DNA from: Hymenobacter sp. YIM 151500-1
GTDB taxonomy: Bacteria; Bacteroidota; Bacteroidia; Cytophagales; Hymenobacteraceae
Direction: 5' to 3'
NCBI RefSeq assembly: GCF_025979885.1
Contig: NZ_CP110139.1
Coordinates: 558,001 to 622,000 of the forward strand
DNA: 64,000 bases
Made by a program: the position numbers and the translations under genes. The notes under the pieces were generated by a model. The model was not told the origin of the DNA. It worked only from the letters and a program-made list of their open reading frames with translations, and did no database searches. Position 1 is the stretch's first letter. Each line of letters opens with the position of its first letter. Shown here in pieces: positions 10,498 through 64,000 of this stretch.

Positions 10498-11385
10498 CTA
10501 TTTCTCGTCCGAGAGTAAGGTGCTCTGCCAAGCCTTCCGAAGCAGGTGCGCGGCCGTGTACTGCGGCCGGTACCCCAGCACCCGCTGCGCCTTCCCGATG
10601 CTGTACACCCGGTCGATGGAATGGGGAAGCTGCCAGCTGAGCCGCTCATACACCGGTAGGGCGTCGGGCAGCCGCTGGGCAAGAACAGCGGCCGGATTTT
10701 GCTTCAGCAGCTCCACATCTTCACGCTGAAACGGGCTGCCCGCTGAGATATTGAATACCTCGAACCCGGCAAAGTCGTGCTCCAGGGCCAGCAGGTGGCC
10801 CACTGCTCCGTCGCGCTCATCCAGGCCGCGGTACAGGCGGTGGTTGGCAGTCAGGTTGGGCGGTTCGGGCAGAAAGCGCGCCACCCGCAGCGCCGCTGTC
10901 TGCACGTTATCTTTCTCGAAAAAGTCCCGGCACAGATTCTCGGCAGCCTGCTTGGTGATGTCGTAAATGTCGCGGGGCTGGGGCACCAGCTCCTCATCCA
11001 CCCACACGGCGCGGTCGGGGGCCACCATGGCCTGCCCGTAGATAGAAGTGGTGCTGGTGTAAAGAAACTTCCTGATGCCGTGCCGCACACAGGCGTTGAG
11101 CAGGTGCAGCGTGCCTTCGATGTTGGTGCGGACGAAATCGAGGCGCGGTACGCCCAGCTCGTACTGCCGGCCGTGCAGCGCGGCCGTATGGATAATGGCC
11201 TGCGCGCCGGCTGTCGCCAGCAAAACGGCGTCAGCATCCCGGATGTCGAGTAGGCAGTCCGTCGTAGGAGCCGGCACCAGGTCTGCGCCGCGGCAAGCGT
11301 AGCCACGGGCGCGCAGCAGCACCACGATTTCGCGGCCCAGCCGGCCAGAGGAGCCCGTAACCAACACGGGCGCAGAAGACGGCAT
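10498..11385 (-). CDS. NAD-dependent epimerase/dehydratase family protein
   Basis: 295 residues of extended short-chain dehydrogenase type. The N-terminal Rossmann motif is VTGSSGRLGRE, and the catalytic YxxxK is YDITK (about residue 146), preceded by TSTTSIYG. It probably acts on a nucleotide sugar or similar substrate, which cannot be assigned. It lies 84 bases downstream of paaD on the same strand, so read-through is possible, though no paa-type role is evident. Confidence 0.8.
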   Translation of the reverse strand: MPSSAPVLVTGSSGRLGREIVVLLRARGYACRGADLVPAPTTDCLLDIRDADAVLLATAGAQAIIHTAALHGRQYELGVPRLDFVRTNIEGTLHLLNACVRHGIRKFLYTSTTSIYGQAMVAPDRAVWVDEELVPQPRDIYDITKQAAENLCRDFFEKDNVQTAALRVARFLPEPPNLTANHRLYRGLDERDGAVGHLLALEHDFAGFEVFNISAGSPFQREDVELLKQNPAAVLAQRLPDALPVYERLSWQLPHSIDRVYSIGKAQRVLGYRPQYTAAHLLRKAWQSTLLSDEK

Positions 11386-11469
11386 AGCGTAAGTTGCGGG
11401 TCTTGGTTACCGTATGGGGCAGATGGATTGCGCCCCGCATCCTCTCCAGGCCGCCCAGACACTGAGCAG

Positions 11470-11955
11470 CTACACCGGCTTAAATTGCTCGAACAGCTGG
11501 CGGCAGTTGTGGCAGTAGTGCACGGCGCGGCACAGCGTGGCGCCGAAGGGTGTGCGTAGCTCGGTGTTGTGCTGGTGGCAGCGCGGGCACTCGGCGTACT
11601 CCAGAATGTCGAGGTCGAGCAGGGCGCCGTCGAGCTTGGGCGGCGTGGCCAGGCCGTGCCGGCGCAGGCCTTCCAGCCCCCGCTCCGTCACCATGTCCGA
11701 AGTCCAGGGCTCCTGCAAGCTGATTTCGGTGGTGACGTGAGGCACGCCGTGGGCGCGCAAAGTGGTTTCCACGTCGCGGCGCATGTAGTCCATGGCCGGG
11801 CAGCCGGCAAAGGTGGGCGTCAGCCGCACGTGCACGCTGCCGTCCGCCTGCACCCGCACCTCCCGAATCACGCCCAAGTCCACAAGCGAAACGGTCGGAA
11901 TTTCGGGGTCCGTTACGGCTTCCAGCCAGGTCAGGATGTCGGCTTCCGTTGTCAT
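11470..11955 (-). CDS. paaD: phenylacetyl-CoA epoxidase accessory subunit PaaD
   Basis: 161 residues. The N-terminal half is a MIP18/DUF59-type domain (VTDPEIPTVSLVDLGVI, TPTFAGCPAMDYM). The C-terminal half is a cysteine-rich module (CPRCHQHN and CHNC), as in PaaD/PaaJ. PaaD is needed for activity of the PaaABCE epoxidase, probably in cofactor or cluster assembly. Last gene of the paa cluster. Its ATG lies inside the left arm of the 11951-12038 inverted repeat. Confidence 0.92.
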   Translation of the reverse strand: MTTEADILTWLEAVTDPEIPTVSLVDLGVIREVRVQADGSVHVRLTPTFAGCPAMDYMRRDVETTLRAHGVPHVTTEISLQEPWTSDMVTERGLEGLRRHGLATPPKLDGALLDLDILEYAECPRCHQHNTELRTPFGATLCRAVHYCHNCRQLFEQFKPV

Positions 11956-12038
11956 TCCGAACGTAGTGAGAAATCTGGGTAAAGACAGGATGAAACGCTA
12001 GCTTGGAAACCCAGATTCCTCACTACGTTCGAAATGAC
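11951..12038. repeat. interspersed palindromic repeat between paaC and paaD
   Basis: A 30-base left arm (GTCATTCCGAACGTAGTGAG...) at 11951-11980 and its near-perfect complement at 12009-12038 can form a long hairpin. This is the type of intergenic repeat whose translation often yields HFERSEESGF-like tails. Confidence 0.85.
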
Positions 12039-12043
12039 AACTC

Positions 12044-12808
12044 TTACCAATCTGCGGTCGGGTCGAGGCGGAACACTTCGGCCATTTCGTCGAGCAGGGG
12101 CTGGAGGTGCTCGGTGTGCTGGCCCTGGCGGCCGCCCAGCACGGGCGTGAGGGTGCGCAGGTCGGGCAGCTCCAGGGCGGTTTGACGGAGCACCCGCGTA
12201 ATGCTTTCTTCCCAGCGTGCGCGCAGCTCATCCTCCCCAATAAACAGCCCCTCGGCCACAATAGCTTCTTCCTGAGCGGTTTTCTCGAAGATGCCCAGCG
12301 CGTAGGGCAGCGTGAATTCCAAGGCCCCCTGCATACGGCCGATGGCTTCTTCGGTGGCCGTGCCCAGGCGCTTCACCCAGGTGTTGGCGTGCAGCACGTG
12401 GTATTTCAACTCGCCTTTCAGCTTGCGGGCCACCTGGGCCAGGGGCTCGTAGGAACTGGCCGCCAGGGCCTCGAAGCGCAGCAGCTCAGCGTGGTCGAAC
12501 AGGAAGTGGCGGATAAGGCTGAAATCATACTCGCCGATGGGCAGCTCCACCAATTGGCAGCAGTGAAACTGCGGGGCGTTGCGGGTAAAGGCCACCGTGT
12601 CGGGTTCGGCCTCGCCTAGCTCATGCAGTAAGGTGTAAAGCTGCAAGGCGTGCCCCAGCTTGTCCTGGGCCATGCTCGAAAAGGCAATGTCCTCCTCCAG
12701 AATCGGCCCCAGCCCGTTCCACTCAGAGTTGCGGTGGCCCAGAATGAGCTGGTCGTCGGCGAGGCGGTACAGAAGATCAAGCGTGGGGTCTTGGAGGTTT
12801 GGGGGCAT
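12044..12808 (-). CDS. paaC: phenylacetyl-CoA epoxidase structural subunit PaaC
   Basis: 254 residues. The N-terminus LLYRLADDQLILGHRNSEW followed by LEEDIAFSSMAQDKLGHA is the PaaC signature: a ferritin-like fold that lacks a full di-iron site and scaffolds PaaA. It works with PaaA and PaaB in the epoxidase that oxidises the aromatic ring of phenylacetyl-CoA. Confidence 0.92.
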   Translation of the reverse strand: MPPNLQDPTLDLLYRLADDQLILGHRNSEWNGLGPILEEDIAFSSMAQDKLGHALQLYTLLHELGEAEPDTVAFTRNAPQFHCCQLVELPIGEYDFSLIRHFLFDHAELLRFEALAASSYEPLAQVARKLKGELKYHVLHANTWVKRLGTATEEAIGRMQGALEFTLPYALGIFEKTAQEEAIVAEGLFIGEDELRARWEESITRVLRQTALELPDLRTLTPVLGGRQGQHTEHLQPLLDEMAEVFRLDPTADW

Positions 12809-61046: not shown

Positions 61047-62573
61047 ATGCGCTTCAACTTACCCTTCCGTAAAAATCAACCCAACGCCGTAAACCACGAA
61101 GGTGCGGCGGCCTACACGCTCACGCCCCAGCTGGAGCTGTACGCGGCGGTGGCTACGGCTGCCCTGTCGGACCAGTTCTACGAAAAAGCCAGCACCCGCC
61201 TGGCCCGTCTGCGCGAACTGGTAGCCCAGTGCGAGCCGCTGTTTGTGGCCCAGCTGGCGGTGTACGCCCGGGAGCAGATGTACCTGCGTTCCGTGCCCCT
61301 GGTGCTGGCCGTGGAGCTGGCCCGCCTGCACCGCGGCGACAACCTGGTGAGCCGCCTGGTGGCCCGCATCGTGCAGCGCCCCGATGAAATCACGGAGCTG
61401 CTGGCCTTCTACGCCCAAGCCAACGGGCGCACCGGCGTGAAAACGCTGAACCGTCTGTCGAAGCAGCTGCAAAAAGGCCTGGCCCTCAGCTTCAACCGGT
61501 TCGACGGCTACCAGCTGGCCAAGTACGATCGGGCCGGGGCCGTGCGCTTGCGCGACGCGCTATTTCTGGTGCACCCTGCCGCCAAAAACGCCGAGCAGCA
61601 AGCCCTGTTCGACCAGTTGGTGGCCGGCACTTTGCCCACGCCCTACACCTGGGAAACCGAGCTGTCGGCCCTGGGTCAAGTGAGTTACGCCACCCCCGAT
61701 GAGCGCGCGGCGGCTTTCCGCCAGAAGTGGGAGGAGCTGCTAGCCAGCGGCAAGCTGGGCTACATGGCTTTGCTGCGCAACCTGCGCAACATCCTGGAAG
61801 CCGACGTGGCGGCCGAAACCATGGTGGAAGTATGCGCTGCCCTGGCCGACCGGCAAGCCGTAGCGCGCAGCAAGCAGCTACCGTTCCGCTTCCTGGCCGC
61901 CTACCGCGAAGTAAAAGCCTTGCAAGGCGGCCACGTGGCGGCGGTGCTCACGGCCCTGGAAGACGCCATAGCCCACAGCGTGGCCAACCTACACGGCTTC
62001 GGCCCCGAAACCCGCGTGGTGGTGGCCTGCGACGTGTCGGGCTCCATGCAGCAGCCGGTGTCACAGCGCAGCAAAGTGCTGCTCTACGACGTGGGCCTGG
62101 TGCTGGGTATGCTCTTGCAAAGCCGCTGCCAGCACGTCACGGCCGGCATGTTCGGCAACACCTGGAAGGTGCTCAGCCTGCCCCGCGGCCCCGTGCTGCG
62201 CAACGTGAACGAGTTCTACCGCCGCGAAGGCGAGGTGGGCTACGCCACCAACGGCCACCTGGTGGTGCGCGACCTGCGCCAGCGCCGGGAGGTGGCCGAC
62301 AAGGTGATGCTGTTCACCGACTGCCAGCTCTGGAACAGCGCCAGTGACGGCAACACGCTAGTCCAGGAATGGGCCGCCTACCGCCGCGAGGTGGCGCCCC
62401 AGGCCCGCCTCTACCTGTTCGACCTGGCCGGCCACGGAACCAGCCCGCTCGACGTGCGCGCCGAGCACGGCGTGGCCCTGATTGCCGGCTGGTCCGACAA
62501 AGTGTTCGACGTGCTAGCGGCTCTGGAAAGCGGCGGTTCGGCGCTGACGGAGCTGGAGAAAATCGAGCTGTGA
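61047..62573 (+). CDS. rsr: Ro60 orthologue Rsr (TROVE and vWA domains)
   Basis: 508 residues. The N-terminal TROVE region (about 10-320) is built of HEAT-like helices (YTLTPQLELYAAVATAALSD, RDALFLVHPAA, LGYMALLRNLRNILEA). The C-terminal vWA domain has a MIDAS: VACDVSGSMQQP (DxSxS), then LFTDCQLW. Ro60/Rsr forms a ring that binds Y RNAs on its outer face and misfolded RNAs in its cavity, working with exonucleases in RNA quality control. A Y-RNA-like array and an rtcB-like gene follow on the same strand, matching the known rsr-yrl-rtcB arrangement. Confidence 0.93.
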   Translation: MRFNLPFRKNQPNAVNHEGAAAYTLTPQLELYAAVATAALSDQFYEKASTRLARLRELVAQCEPLFVAQLAVYAREQMYLRSVPLVLAVELARLHRGDNLVSRLVARIVQRPDEITELLAFYAQANGRTGVKTLNRLSKQLQKGLALSFNRFDGYQLAKYDRAGAVRLRDALFLVHPAAKNAEQQALFDQLVAGTLPTPYTWETELSALGQVSYATPDERAAAFRQKWEELLASGKLGYMALLRNLRNILEADVAAETMVEVCAALADRQAVARSKQLPFRFLAAYREVKALQGGHVAAVLTALEDAIAHSVANLHGFGPETRVVVACDVSGSMQQPVSQRSKVLLYDVGLVLGMLLQSRCQHVTAGMFGNTWKVLSLPRGPVLRNVNEFYRREGEVGYATNGHLVVRDLRQRREVADKVMLFTDCQLWNSASDGNTLVQEWAAYRREVAPQARLYLFDLAGHGTSPLDVRAEHGVALIAGWSDKVFDVLAALESGGSALTELEKIEL

Positions 62574-62593
62574 GCTTTGCGCGAGCGGCCAGC

Positions 62594-62699
62594 AGATGTA
62601 GCGCGAAGTTGTACTTCGCGAGGCGCCAAAACGATGTAACTGAAATAGCAAGTTGGTGGCTCAGACGCGAGTCGCGAAGTACAACTTCGCGTTACATCT
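62594..62699. repeat. REP-like inverted repeat after rsr
   Basis: The 28-base arm AGATGTAGCGCGAAGTTGTA... at 62594-62621 and its near complement at 62672-62699. Each arm is also internally palindromic (CGCGAAGT/ACTTCGCG). Confidence 0.85.
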
Positions 62700-62956
62700 C
62701 AATCAATTTTCAACCGTGCGCCAAGCTCCGGCTTGGCGCTATATCAGCCCCAGGAGCGGCATTAAAGCAAAGCAGCGCCGCTCCTGGGTTGCTGCCGGAA
62801 CTCTACAAAACTCTCACCTCTCATGTCTCATATCTCACTTCTATAAACTGGGAAGGCGGCTGACCACGTACCGGCAGCCGCCGGCCGGAACGGTGCTAGC
62901 CGGGGCTAATCGGGCTCCGGCGGGCCGTTCCAACTGGGGCCGATGGTTTCAAGTTC
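62700..62956 (+). other. structured leader between rsr and the Y RNA array
   Basis: Several hairpins and no gene: GCGCCAAGC/GCTTGGCGC at about 62719-62740, CCCAGGAGCGG/CCGCTCCTGGG at about 62750-62790, GGCGGCTG/CAGCCGCC at 62855-62882 and GGAACGG/CCGTTCC at 62887-62931. None has a T tract, so transcription could continue into the array. Confidence 0.5.
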
Positions 62957-63077
62957 GGGTGCCGTAGGCGGGCGTTACTTCGTCTGGTGAAAGGCAGAAG
63001 CTTCGGCTGCTGTTCAGGGTTCGAATCCCCGGTTGCGGCCCCAAGCCGCAACTGACGCGCCGGCCGCTTGTTGCCCC
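62957..63077 (+). ncRNA. Y-RNA-like unit 1 (partial tRNA-like module)
   Basis: 121 bases. 5' box GGGTGCCGTAG, then the clamp strand containing GGCG, TTACTTCG, a UUCG-loop hairpin (AGCTTCGGCT), T-arm-like CAGGGTTCGAATCCCCG, an acceptor-like hairpin GTTGCGGC/GCCGCAAC, the clamp complement CGCC, and the 3' box GCTTGTTGCCCC. No recognisable D arm. Confidence 0.8.
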
Positions 63078-63111
63078 GTTTGAAAACCAGGGCCCATCCT
63101 ATTACGCTGCT

Positions 63112-63229
63112 GGGTGCCGTAGAAGAGCGTTACTTCGGGTTATACGTTCGATTCGTATCAGGACCGCACCGCCACATTCTGGTCCTGTAGCTCAATTGGT
63201 AGAGCAGAAGCGCTTTCGCTTGTTGCCCC
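63112..63229 (+). ncRNA. Y-RNA-like unit 2 (permuted tRNA-like module)
   Basis: 118 bases. 5' box GGGTGCCGTAG, clamp AGCG, TTACTTCG, T arm ATACG-TTCGATT-CGTAT (63142-63158), acceptor strand CAGGACC (63159-63165), 15-base linker, acceptor strand GGTCCTG (63181-63187), D arm TAGCTCAATTGGTAGAGCA, clamp CGCT, 3' box GCTTGTTGCCCC. The order T arm, acceptor, D arm is a circular permutation of tRNA without an anticodon arm. Confidence 0.88.
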
Positions 63230-63257
63230 AGCAGTTCTTTTCAATTGATTTCCGGGC

Positions 63258-63385
63258 GGGTGCCGTAGTCGAGCCATACTTCGCATTTCGGTTGCCCAGG
63301 TCGTGGGTTCGAGTCCCACCGGTGGCCGCAAGGTGGCCGTAGCTCAGCGGTAGAGCAGGAAAAAGGGGCTGGCGCTTGTTGCCCC
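63258..63385 (+). ncRNA. Y-RNA-like unit 3 (permuted tRNA-like module)
   Basis: 128 bases. 5' box GGGTGCCGTAG, clamp AGCC, ATACTTCG, T arm GTGGGTTCGAGTCCCAC, acceptor strands CGGTGGCC and GGTGGCCG (one mismatch, some wobble) joined by GCAA, D arm TAGCTCAGCGGTAGAGCA, clamp GGCT, 3' box GCTTGTTGCCCC. Confidence 0.88.
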
Positions 63386-63416
63386 GTTCGGAAAACAATA
63401 CCAATCTTACTTACCC

Positions 63417-63536
63417 GGTGCCGTAGCGCAGCCTTACTTCGTTTGGGACGATGGGGTCGTGGGTTCGAGTCCCACCTGCCGCGAGGCAGTAGCTCAGTTG
63501 GTTAGAGCACATACGTAGGCTGCGCGCTTGTTGCCC
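63417..63536 (+). ncRNA. Y-RNA-like unit 4 (permuted tRNA-like module)
   Basis: 120 bases. 5' box GGTGCCGTAG, clamp GCGCAGCCT paired perfectly with AGGCTGCGC, TTACTTCG, T arm GTGGGTTCGAGTCCCAC, acceptor CTGCC-GCGA-GGCAG with a GNRA loop, D arm TAGCTCAGTTGGTTAGAGCA, 3' box GCTTGTTGCCC. Confidence 0.9.
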
Positions 63537-63561
63537 GGCGTAGGTAAGCACATAACCGGAA

Positions 63562-63610
63562 GGTGTCGTAGGGCAGGCATACTTCGTCCATGAAAGGGCC
63601 TGTCCGCCCC
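63562..63610 (+). ncRNA. Y-RNA-like unit 5 (minimal, no tRNA-like module)
   Basis: 49 bases. 5' box GGTGTCGTAG, clamp GGCAGGC, ATACTTCG, short loop, clamp GCCTGTC (G-U allowed), then CGCCCC in place of the full 3' box. Probably a shortened or decaying copy. Confidence 0.6.
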
Positions 63611-63633
63611 ATTACCCTTCCTTTCGCGCGGCT

Positions 63634-63715
63634 GGGTGCCGTAGGGTCGCGCTACTTCGACCTGTCCCGTCCGATGAGGGCCTGGCCCTCACGCCCGCGG
63701 CCCGCTCGTTGCCCC
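63634..63715 (+). ncRNA. Y-RNA-like unit 6 (hairpin in place of tRNA-like module)
   Basis: 82 bases. 5' box GGGTGCCGTAG, clamp GGTCGCG paired with CGCGGCC (one G-U), CTACTTCG, internal hairpin TGAGGGC-CTG-GCCCTCA, 3' box GCTCGTTGCCCC. It has the Rsr-binding framework but no tRNA-like arms. Confidence 0.7.
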
Positions 63716-63760
63716 AGCTTCCGCGAAAAATCAACTATCAACTACAAAAAACGCCTTGTC

Positions 63761-64000
63761 ATGGCACAACAACTACGCGGCAACGACCTGCGGAAGCTAG
63801 GCTTCCCCGAAGGCCGGGCTATTGGGCTTGCGCTGGCCCAGTTGCAGCGCAAACACCTGAAGCGGCTCTCCCTCACCGACCAGCTGCTGCTGTTGCAGCA
63901 GGTGTTGGCCGAGCCCCACGACTTTGCCACCCACCTCGACTGGAGCCACGTGGCTGCGGCCCTGCTGCCCCCACCCAGCCGCCATATCGAGCTGGTGGCC
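63761..64000 (+). CDS. rtcB: N-terminal part of a probable RNA ligase RtcB (cut by window end)
   Basis: 80 codons from ATG at 63761; the gene continues beyond the window. The start QLRGNDLRKLGFPEGRAIGL, then ALAQLQRKHLK, and LLLLQQVLAEPHDFATH, resembles the N-terminal extension of Bacteroidota RtcB-family proteins. The catalytic region is not in view, so the call also rests on position: rtcB commonly follows rsr and Y RNA genes. RtcB joins 2',3'-cyclic phosphate and 5'-OH RNA ends. Confidence 0.6.
   Translation, partial: MAQQLRGNDLRKLGFPEGRAIGLALAQLQRKHLKRLSLTDQLLLLQQVLAEPHDFATHLDWSHVAAALLPPPSRHIELVA

What the first reader, a model, noticed from the sequence alone, without database searches (positions are those of the whole stretch)
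61047..64000. Rsr - six-unit Y RNA array - RtcB-like locus
Seen: a TROVE/vWA gene, then six tandem units each with GGTGCCGTAG (GGTGTCGTAG in unit 5), a variable stem strand, TACTTCG, an insert, the matching stem strand and, except in unit 5, a 3' box GCTTGTTGCCC (one change in unit 6), followed by an rtcB-like start. Known: bacterial Y RNAs of the YrlA family have an Rsr-binding helix and a tRNA-like module, and rsr-yrl-rtcB loci exist, usually with one or two Y RNAs. Inference: this is an expanded array, possibly giving Rsr several alternative RNA adaptors from one transcript.
Basis: partly seen in the sequence, partly recalled or inferred. Interest (0 to 1): 0.95.

Follow-up and report, generated by a model that had tools for sequence, protein, structure and literature searches.

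The report
Y RNA array with tRNA-like cloverleafs
Next to a bacterial Ro-protein gene and an RNA-repair gene sits a row of six small RNA genes, two of which look like complete tRNAs, anticodon included, cut open and grafted onto a Ro-binding stem; they may be decoys or sensors for enzymes that attack tRNAs.

Summary
A TROVE/vWA Rsr gene (61047-62573) is followed by six Y-RNA-like units (about 62945-63729) and rtcB (from 63761). Such arrays are normal in this group: 51 Hymenobacter-group loci carry 4-11 units (median 7) with rtcB 3' of them; 30 other Bacteroidota Ro loci carry 1-8. Most units recur as ordered classes with different heads. Rfam YrlA matches units 2-4, below its gathering score.

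The new point is in units 3 and 4. YrlA is described as mimicking three tRNA arms (D, T, acceptor); these units also have an anticodon arm, giving a circularly permuted full cloverleaf with the Ro stem inserted between positions 28 and 29. In 80 such units from 59 of 81 loci, 27-28 pairs with 42-43 in all 80 (partner shuffles: mean 35); U33 is kept in 77, a purine at 37 in 76. In class A the anticodon is the most variable of 13 compared blocks. The acceptor end is sealed, so these are mimics. I favour Rsr-bound decoys or sensors for anticodon-loop enzymes, with RtcB resealing what is cut; this function is inferred. Key Y RNA papers were not readable here.

The parts
61047..62573 (+). rsr (Ro60 orthologue): TROVE + vWA_Ro60 domains, 508 aa
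   Evidence: ORF; Pfam TROVE 103.2 bits, vWA_Ro60 28.3 bits, both over cut-off
62846..62945 (+). conserved structured element just 5' of unit 1 (two GC-rich hairpins), function unknown
   Evidence: blastn to 16 other loci at E<1e-3, some only in part; alignment A6 of 13 loci; 28 predicted pairs, 5 with double changes
62945..63090 (+). unit 1 (class D): Ro-stem, hairpin, T-arm, capped acceptor-like stem; no D arm seen
   Evidence: fold_alignment (28 pairs, 7 with double changes in 14 sequences)
63105..63237 (+). unit 2 (class Q): classical three-arm YrlA-like unit; 27-28 GA pairs with 42-43 TC
   Evidence: Rfam YrlA 40.0 bits, model 1-114; no class alignment was folded
63246..63397 (+). unit 3 (class A): four-arm permuted cloverleaf
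   Evidence: Rfam YrlA 32.3 bits; ARAGORN calls a tRNA-Arg(tcg) here
63283..63297 (+). unit 3 anticodon arm: 29-31 GCA (63283-63285), loop TTTCGGT (63286-63292, anticodon UCG), 39-41 TGC, 42-43 CC; partner 27-28 GG at 63358-63359
63303..63319 (+). unit 3 T-arm GTGGG-TTCGAGT-CCCAC
63342..63356 (+). unit 3 D-arm GCTC-AGCGGTA-GAGC
63405..63548 (+). unit 4 (class E): four-arm permuted cloverleaf
   Evidence: Rfam YrlA 40.3 bits; no class alignment was folded
63439..63453 (+). unit 4 anticodon arm: 29-31 TCG, loop TTTGGGA (63442-63448, anticodon UGG), 39-41 CGA, 42-43 TG; partner 27-28 CA at 63510-63511
   Evidence: the loop is identical to a tRNA loop of the same genome
63476..63489 (+). unit 4 acceptor stem, 5 bp capped by GCGA: no free acceptor end
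63558..63621 (+). unit 5 (class U, near J): short unit, no tRNA-like head found; 3' strand with ACCCTT instead of CTTGTTGCCC
   Evidence: 13 pairs, 8 with double changes in 11 sequences of classes J and U
63622..63729 (+). unit 6 (small cluster; aligned with class B): short unit, no tRNA-like head found
   Evidence: 25 pairs, 13 with double changes in 21 sequences
63761..64000 (+). start of rtcB (first of two copies; continues beyond the window)
   Evidence: ORF in L083; Pfam RtcB 276.1 bits

Best explanation
The locus makes Rsr and a set of six Y RNAs that share a conserved basal helix but carry different heads, followed by the RNA ligase RtcB. Unit 2 has the known three-arm tRNA-like head; units 3 and 4 have a complete, circularly permuted tRNA cloverleaf in which the basal stem enters the anticodon stem between positions 28 and 29 and the acceptor end is sealed by a short loop; unit 1 has a T-arm head without a D arm; units 5 and 6 have no tRNA-like head. 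Shown by sequence comparison: the conserved units, their classes and the four-arm architecture. Inferred from known Y RNA biology: Rsr binds each unit, and the three-arm head serves as tether. Proposed and untested: the four-arm units present an anticodon loop, with a changeable anticodon, to enzymes that act on anticodon loops (for example anticodon nucleases) as a decoy or damage sensor held by Rsr, next to the RtcB that can rejoin cut RNAs.
For: Array and linkage: 51 of 51 Hymenobacter-group loci have Rsr, 4-11 units and rtcB 3' of the units. In 395 Bacteroidota genomes the fixed motif is in 29 and TROVE in 28, both in 18; all 11 genomes with two or more motif matches have TROVE, and the 11 motif genomes without TROVE have one match each. 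Covariation of the classes of units 1, 3, 5 and 6. Classes in conserved order, head type mostly constant within a class. Four-arm architecture: of 147 parsed T+D units, 80 have the 29-41 hairpin with 3/3 pairs; in these 27-28/42-43 pairs in 80 of 80 with 10 pair combinations, against mean 35.3, max 47 in 2000 partner shuffles, and 0-46 in 12 shifted registers. The other 67 units pair there in 60, shuffles mean 15.7, max 28, as a three-arm head would. The hairpin is fully paired in 80 of 106 long-enough units at its register, 0-8 at shifts of 1-3. U33 in 77 and R37 in 76 of 80. The tertiary pair 15-48 is G-C (127) or A-U (14) in 141 of 147, shuffle mean 114.9, max 125. Among close class A pairs the anticodon triplet is the most variable of 13 compared blocks (0.236 differences per site; next 0.173).
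Against: No RNA, binding or cleavage data. Plain RNAfold does not choose the cloverleaf: enforcing it costs 4.3 (unit 3) and 5.0 (unit 4) kcal/mol, without tertiary contacts. The uninterrupted part of the anticodon stem is only 3 bp. Some triplets would read stop codons (UUA, UCA), and 33 of 80 loops equal one of the 32 tRNA loops collected from the window's genome (30 of its 43 tRNA places fetched, so a lower bound): the triplet may be unconstrained. 22 of 81 loci have no unit that passes the four-arm rule, and 67 of 147 T+D units do not pass it. rtcB is in held DNA of only 10 of 30 other loci, in one of them 5' of ro. Ten of the 28 TROVE genomes lack the fixed motif.
Confidence: 0.5

Rival explanations
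1. The anticodon arm is part of tRNA-shape mimicry only. The heads are recognised as tRNA (by PNPase, modification enzymes or other tRNA-binding proteins), the U-turn fold is kept for shape, and the triplet drifts freely.
For: Triplet highly variable while U33, R37, 15-48 and 27-28/42-43 are kept; some triplets would read stop codons; a review reports that YrlA is a substrate of the tRNA enzymes DusA and TruB (PMC8394870, passages).
Against: 36-37 follows tRNA usage (U36-A37 38, G36-G37 23, G36-A37 11 of 80), and in the 15 registered units of classes C and E G36 is invariant while 34 varies, so the triplet is not free at every position. Shared ancestry could also give this.
Confidence: 0.35
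2. Ordinary dosage expansion: redundant copies of one Rsr adaptor.
For: Tandem, same basal helix, variable number.
Against: Most units form classes that recur in the same order across the genus (84 of 355 units fall in small clusters), with their own head types (by regular expression A 51 of 55 T+D, B 32 of 32 without head, F 15 of 15 T only; class C is mixed).
Confidence: 0.1
3. The units are cis-acting elements of the rtcB messenger (attenuators or processing sites) rather than free RNAs.
For: They lie 5' of rtcB in all 51 Hymenobacter-group loci.
Against: The same units accompany ro in 20 of 30 other loci with no rtcB in the held DNA, and in L073 and L080 they lie 5' of ro.
Confidence: 0.04
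4. Units 3 and 4 are circularly permuted tRNA genes that RtcB circularises and that mature into working tRNAs.
For: Order 3' half then 5' half, RtcB next door; circularly permuted tRNA genes are described (PMC3978253, start of abstract in search listing).
Against: Acceptor stems are capped by short loops (unit 4: 5 bp plus GCGA); triplets UUA and UCA occur; the units keep the basal helix of the other Y units.
Confidence: 0.03

Closest known systems
YrlA / bacterial Y RNA (Rfam RF02553)
   Same: Gene beside rsr; long basal helix; circularly permuted tRNA-like head with T, acceptor and D arms (PMC8394870 and PMC11472068, passages). The Rfam model matches units 2-4.
   Different: Scores 32-40 bits against a gathering score of 69, while a Rhizobium Y RNA scores 95.1. 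The Rfam consensus has four unpaired bases between basal stem and T-arm, so no anticodon arm; units 3 and 4 have one. Units 5 and 6 have no tRNA-like head.
Salmonella rsr-yrlBA-rtcBA RNA repair operon
   Same: Rsr, Y RNAs and RtcB in one locus (PMC7790460, passages).
   Different: Six Y-like units instead of the two named there, and two RtcB genes. RtcA and RtcR were not systematically sought here.
D. radiodurans Rsr / Y RNA / PNPase complex (RYPER)
   Same: Rsr with Y RNAs; the proposed tether role is taken from it (PMC4726728 and PMC8394870, passages).
   Different: PNPase binding was not tested here; several head types per locus.
Phage tRNAs that evade tRNA-targeting defences through anticodon loop mutations
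   Same: Anticodon loop as the contested surface (PMC10264068, title and start of abstract in search listing); tRNA genes also lie among Y units in some Ro loci.
   Different: Those are described as tRNAs; here the acceptor is sealed and the RNA hangs on a basal stem like that of Y RNAs.

Membership tests
Bacterial Ro60 (Rsr) | TROVE domain over curated cut-off | tested here: met
   103.2 bits vs 23
Bacterial Ro60 (Rsr) | Ro60 vWA domain over curated cut-off | tested here: met
   28.3 bits vs 27.7
Bacterial Ro60 (Rsr) | binds Y RNA | not testable with these tools
   linkage only
YrlA (RF02553) | Rfam gathering score 69 bits | tested here: not met
   units 2, 3, 4: 40.0, 32.3, 40.3 bits; units 1, 5, 6 no match listed at E up to 10; none in 12 loci
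YrlA (RF02553) | permuted T, acceptor, D arms | tested here: met
   units 2, 3, 4; not found in units 1, 5, 6
YrlA (RF02553) | three arms only, no anticodon arm (as in the Rfam consensus) | tested here: not met
   units 3 and 4 have a 29-41 hairpin; unit 2 conforms
YrlA (RF02553) | Rsr-binding basal helix | tested here: inconclusive
   conserved helix with covariation in four classes; binding not tested
tRNA gene (ARAGORN tRNA-Arg in unit 3) | open acceptor end in linear order | tested here: not met
   a D arm lies 3' of the T arm and the acceptor is capped
RtcB ligase | PF01139 over cut-off | tested here: met
   276.1 and 271.8 bits for the two genes
rsr-yrl-rtcBA RNA repair operon | rtcA and RtcR nearby | not tested
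   only ORFs in L083 8700-16000 were listed, and three were scanned against Pfam

The most novel reading that the evidence does not exclude
Bacteria and some phages encode whole-cloverleaf Y RNAs: tRNA mimics with a real, rapidly changing anticodon loop mounted on Ro60. They act as bait or damage sensors in an arms race with anticodon nucleases, with RtcB in the same locus to reseal what is cut.
Probability: 0.3. Interest if true: 0.92.

Novelty: new variant of a known kind. Interest (0 to 1): 0.74.

Why it matters
What bacterial Ro60 and Y RNAs do inside RNA repair loci is open; Hughes et al. [quoted passage not shown] Y RNAs that really carry an anticodon loop, with a triplet that differs in 114 of 199 close class A pairs, make this directly testable. 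They also show that Y RNA annotation is incomplete: in the loci tested Rfam misses them at its gathering score, and tRNA finders or annotators call some of them tRNA genes.

Tried and rejected
Covariance model of my own: not built; class alignments with shuffles and register shifts were used instead. 'Unit 5 is a decayed copy': not favoured, because its class shares a 3' strand of its own with covariation, although the window's copy departs from the class consensus there. 'TACTTCG is a protein-binding box only': its last base (GCA type), last two (CGA type) or last three (TCG type) are positions in the anticodon stem. 'The anticodons are copies of host tRNAs': not a general rule on the data seen (33 of 80 loops), but the host set was partial and from one genome. 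Blind test of 291 T-arm units for a 7-nt-loop hairpin gave 96 canonical loops against a shuffled mean of 23.0, max 38; it mixes classes without an anticodon arm, so fixed-register tests replaced it. In one search the registers were chosen after seeing class A, by flanking bases only. Rows dropped: units without a recognisable T or D arm (147 parsed of 506 anchors), units outside the three registers (50 of 53 class A kept), class A units outside the four-arm rule and pairs of unequal length; acceptor stem, D loop, linkers and outer stem were not compared there, and rates are not corrected for phylogeny. Unit counts include a few weak matches (for example L037 9643, 3' of rtcB). The head-type expression is crude: it misses the T-arm of most class D units and the D-like GGTAGGGC segment of class F that the alignments show.
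Full report
What is there. The window's last 3 kb hold an Rsr gene (TROVE plus Ro60 vWA), a conserved structured element, six repeat units and the start of rtcB.

The array is general in its group. Of 199 Ro relatives found in named genomes the best 80 were kept; these plus this locus were scanned for the 5' motif: 506 matches on the + strand against 17 on the other strand and 6 in regenerated sequence; 481 lie within 4.5 kb 3' of ro. The 51 Hymenobacter-group loci have 4-11 units, median 7, a few weak matches included, and all have rtcB 3' of the units in the held DNA. The 30 other Bacteroidota loci have 1-8 units, in 28 of 30 on the 3' side of ro, and 10 of 30 have rtcB in the held DNA. These loci are the closest relatives of this Ro, so they do not sample the phylum evenly. 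In an even sample of 395 Bacteroidota genomes the fixed motif is in 29 and TROVE in 28, both in 18; all 11 genomes with two or more motif matches have TROVE; 10 TROVE genomes lack the fixed motif.

The units are structured RNAs of distinct kinds. In 355 Hymenobacter-group units clustering gives classes that recur in the same order; 84 units fall in small clusters. The window reads D, Q, A, E, U and a small cluster that I aligned with class B. By a crude expression the head type is nearly constant in many classes: T and D arm in 51 of 55 of class A, none in 32 of 32 of class B, T arm only in 15 of 15 of class F; class C is mixed, and the expression misses features of D and F that the alignments show. 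RNAalifold finds double-sided changes in 12 of 29 pairs for class A, 7 of 28 for D, 13 of 25 for B with unit 6 added, and 8 of 13 for J and U. Classes Q and E (units 2 and 4) were not folded as alignments. Rfam YrlA finds units 2-4 only below its gathering score, although it scores a Rhizobium Y RNA at 95.1 bits.

The anticodon arm. YrlA is described as having D, T and acceptor arms in circularly permuted order (PMC8394870, PMC11472068, passages), and the Rfam consensus leaves four unpaired bases between basal stem and T-arm. In units 3 and 4 this place holds a hairpin with a 7-nt loop. Read as a tRNA, 29-31, loop 32-38 and 39-41 form the hairpin, 42-43 and a 5-nt variable loop follow, then T-arm, capped acceptor stem, D-arm, base 26 and 27-28. 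If this is right, 27-28 must pair with 42-43 across the whole head. They do in 80 of 80 units that have the hairpin, using ten pair combinations (GG/CC 49, CA/TG 16 and others); partner shuffles give 35.3 on average and 47 at most; twelve shifted registers give 0-46, the 46 probably due to a run of C in class A. All 54 distinct sequences pair. The hairpin itself is fully paired in 80 of 106 units long enough, and in 0-8 at shifted registers. The 67 other T+D units pair at 27-28/42-43 in 60.

Loop and core follow tRNA rules. U33 in 77 of 80, purine 37 in 76 of 80; 32-38 is C-A in 35, U-U in 20, U-A in 11; 36-37 is U-A in 38, G-G in 23, G-A in 11. The tertiary pair 15-48 is G-C in 127 and A-U in 14 of 147 T+D units, above every one of 5000 shuffles. 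In class A, stems change in a compensatory way (GCA/TGC 35, CGA/TCG 7, GCG/CGC 6, mismatched 2 of 50), and 17 triplets occur in 50 units. Among 199 close class A pairs the triplet is the most variable of 13 compared blocks (0.236 differences per site; inner stem 0.173, T loop 0.144, others below 0.1), and it differs in 114; one pair is identical in all compared blocks except the triplet (L017 CCU, L030 UUU). Twenty-six triplets occur in the 80 units, UUU most often (22).

Limits. The sequences are related, so counts are not independent events; the register shifts and the ten pair combinations are the safer evidence. Plain RNAfold prefers another fold by 4.3 and 5.0 kcal/mol. Twenty-two of 81 loci have no unit that passes the four-arm rule. 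No expression or binding data were available.

Beyond Bacteroidota. Twelve Ro loci of phages and plasmids were read. Permuted modules appear in nine of them, with some false calls between neighbouring tRNA genes; a four-arm unit with U33, R37, three hairpin pairs and paired 27-28/42-43 appears in Caulobacter phage CcrColossus (overlapping an annotated tRNA-Gln), Xanthomonas phage Olaya and a Microcystis phage, and not in the other nine; a Deinococcus plasmid comes near with two of three pairs. A 192-kb viral contig (L239) has five motif matches at a loose threshold around its Ro gene, two of them with a permuted tRNA-like head, of which one passes the four-arm rule. Two other viral Ro contigs (L238, L240) showed none on the Ro strand.

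Function. That Rsr binds Y RNA basal stems and that a Y RNA tethers Rsr to PNPase is known for other bacteria (passages). Hughes et al. saw no fragments of YrlA when tRNAs were cut in Salmonella and suggest that it might inhibit the nuclease (passages). Four-arm units would offer such enzymes the very loop they cut, on an RNA with no acceptor end, beside RtcB. This is my favoured but unproven reading; shape mimicry with a free triplet is the serious rival.

Novelty. In the search listings and the passages read I saw no anticodon arm described in a Y RNA. The primary papers were not held, so I cannot say that it is not in print.

Noticed in passing
window 62846-62945: A GC-rich element of two hairpins is conserved 5' of a unit in 16 other loci (the first unit in 13 of them); it has no Y motif and no T-arm. 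It could mark the array's 5' end or be a separate RNA.
   Followed up: partly
window 62597-62700: Two copies of a palindrome around GCGAAGT-ACTTCGC lie between rsr and the array; a similar stretch lies at L083 10173-10274, just 3' of the first rtcB: REP-like.
   Followed up: no
L083 10315-11133 (minus) and 11122-12552: A methyladenine glycosylase gene lies between two RtcB genes in this genome; eight other Hymenobacter-group loci also show a second rtcB in the held DNA.
   Followed up: partly
L057, L058, L060, L061, L077, L078, L080: ARAGORN tRNA genes per locus among or beside the Y units (at least one call, in L078, overlaps a Y unit). Ten proteins from six of these loci include RNA ligase, WYL, Band_7, AAA, PcfJ, RlaP and RNaseH-like: RNA repair islands with their own tRNA sets.
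   Followed up: partly
Class D units, e.g. L005 7056, L013 8038, L014 6870, L020 6982: The hairpin before the T-arm reads TCTGA-CTGTTAA-TCAGA (CTATTAA in L014), the anticodon arm of the tRNA-Asn found in the window's genome; other class D units have unrelated hairpins there.
   Followed up: partly
L242 1649-1716; window 63258-63329: Four-arm Y RNAs are taken for tRNA genes: annotated tRNA-Gln in phage CcrColossus, ARAGORN tRNA-Arg in the window.
   Followed up: yes
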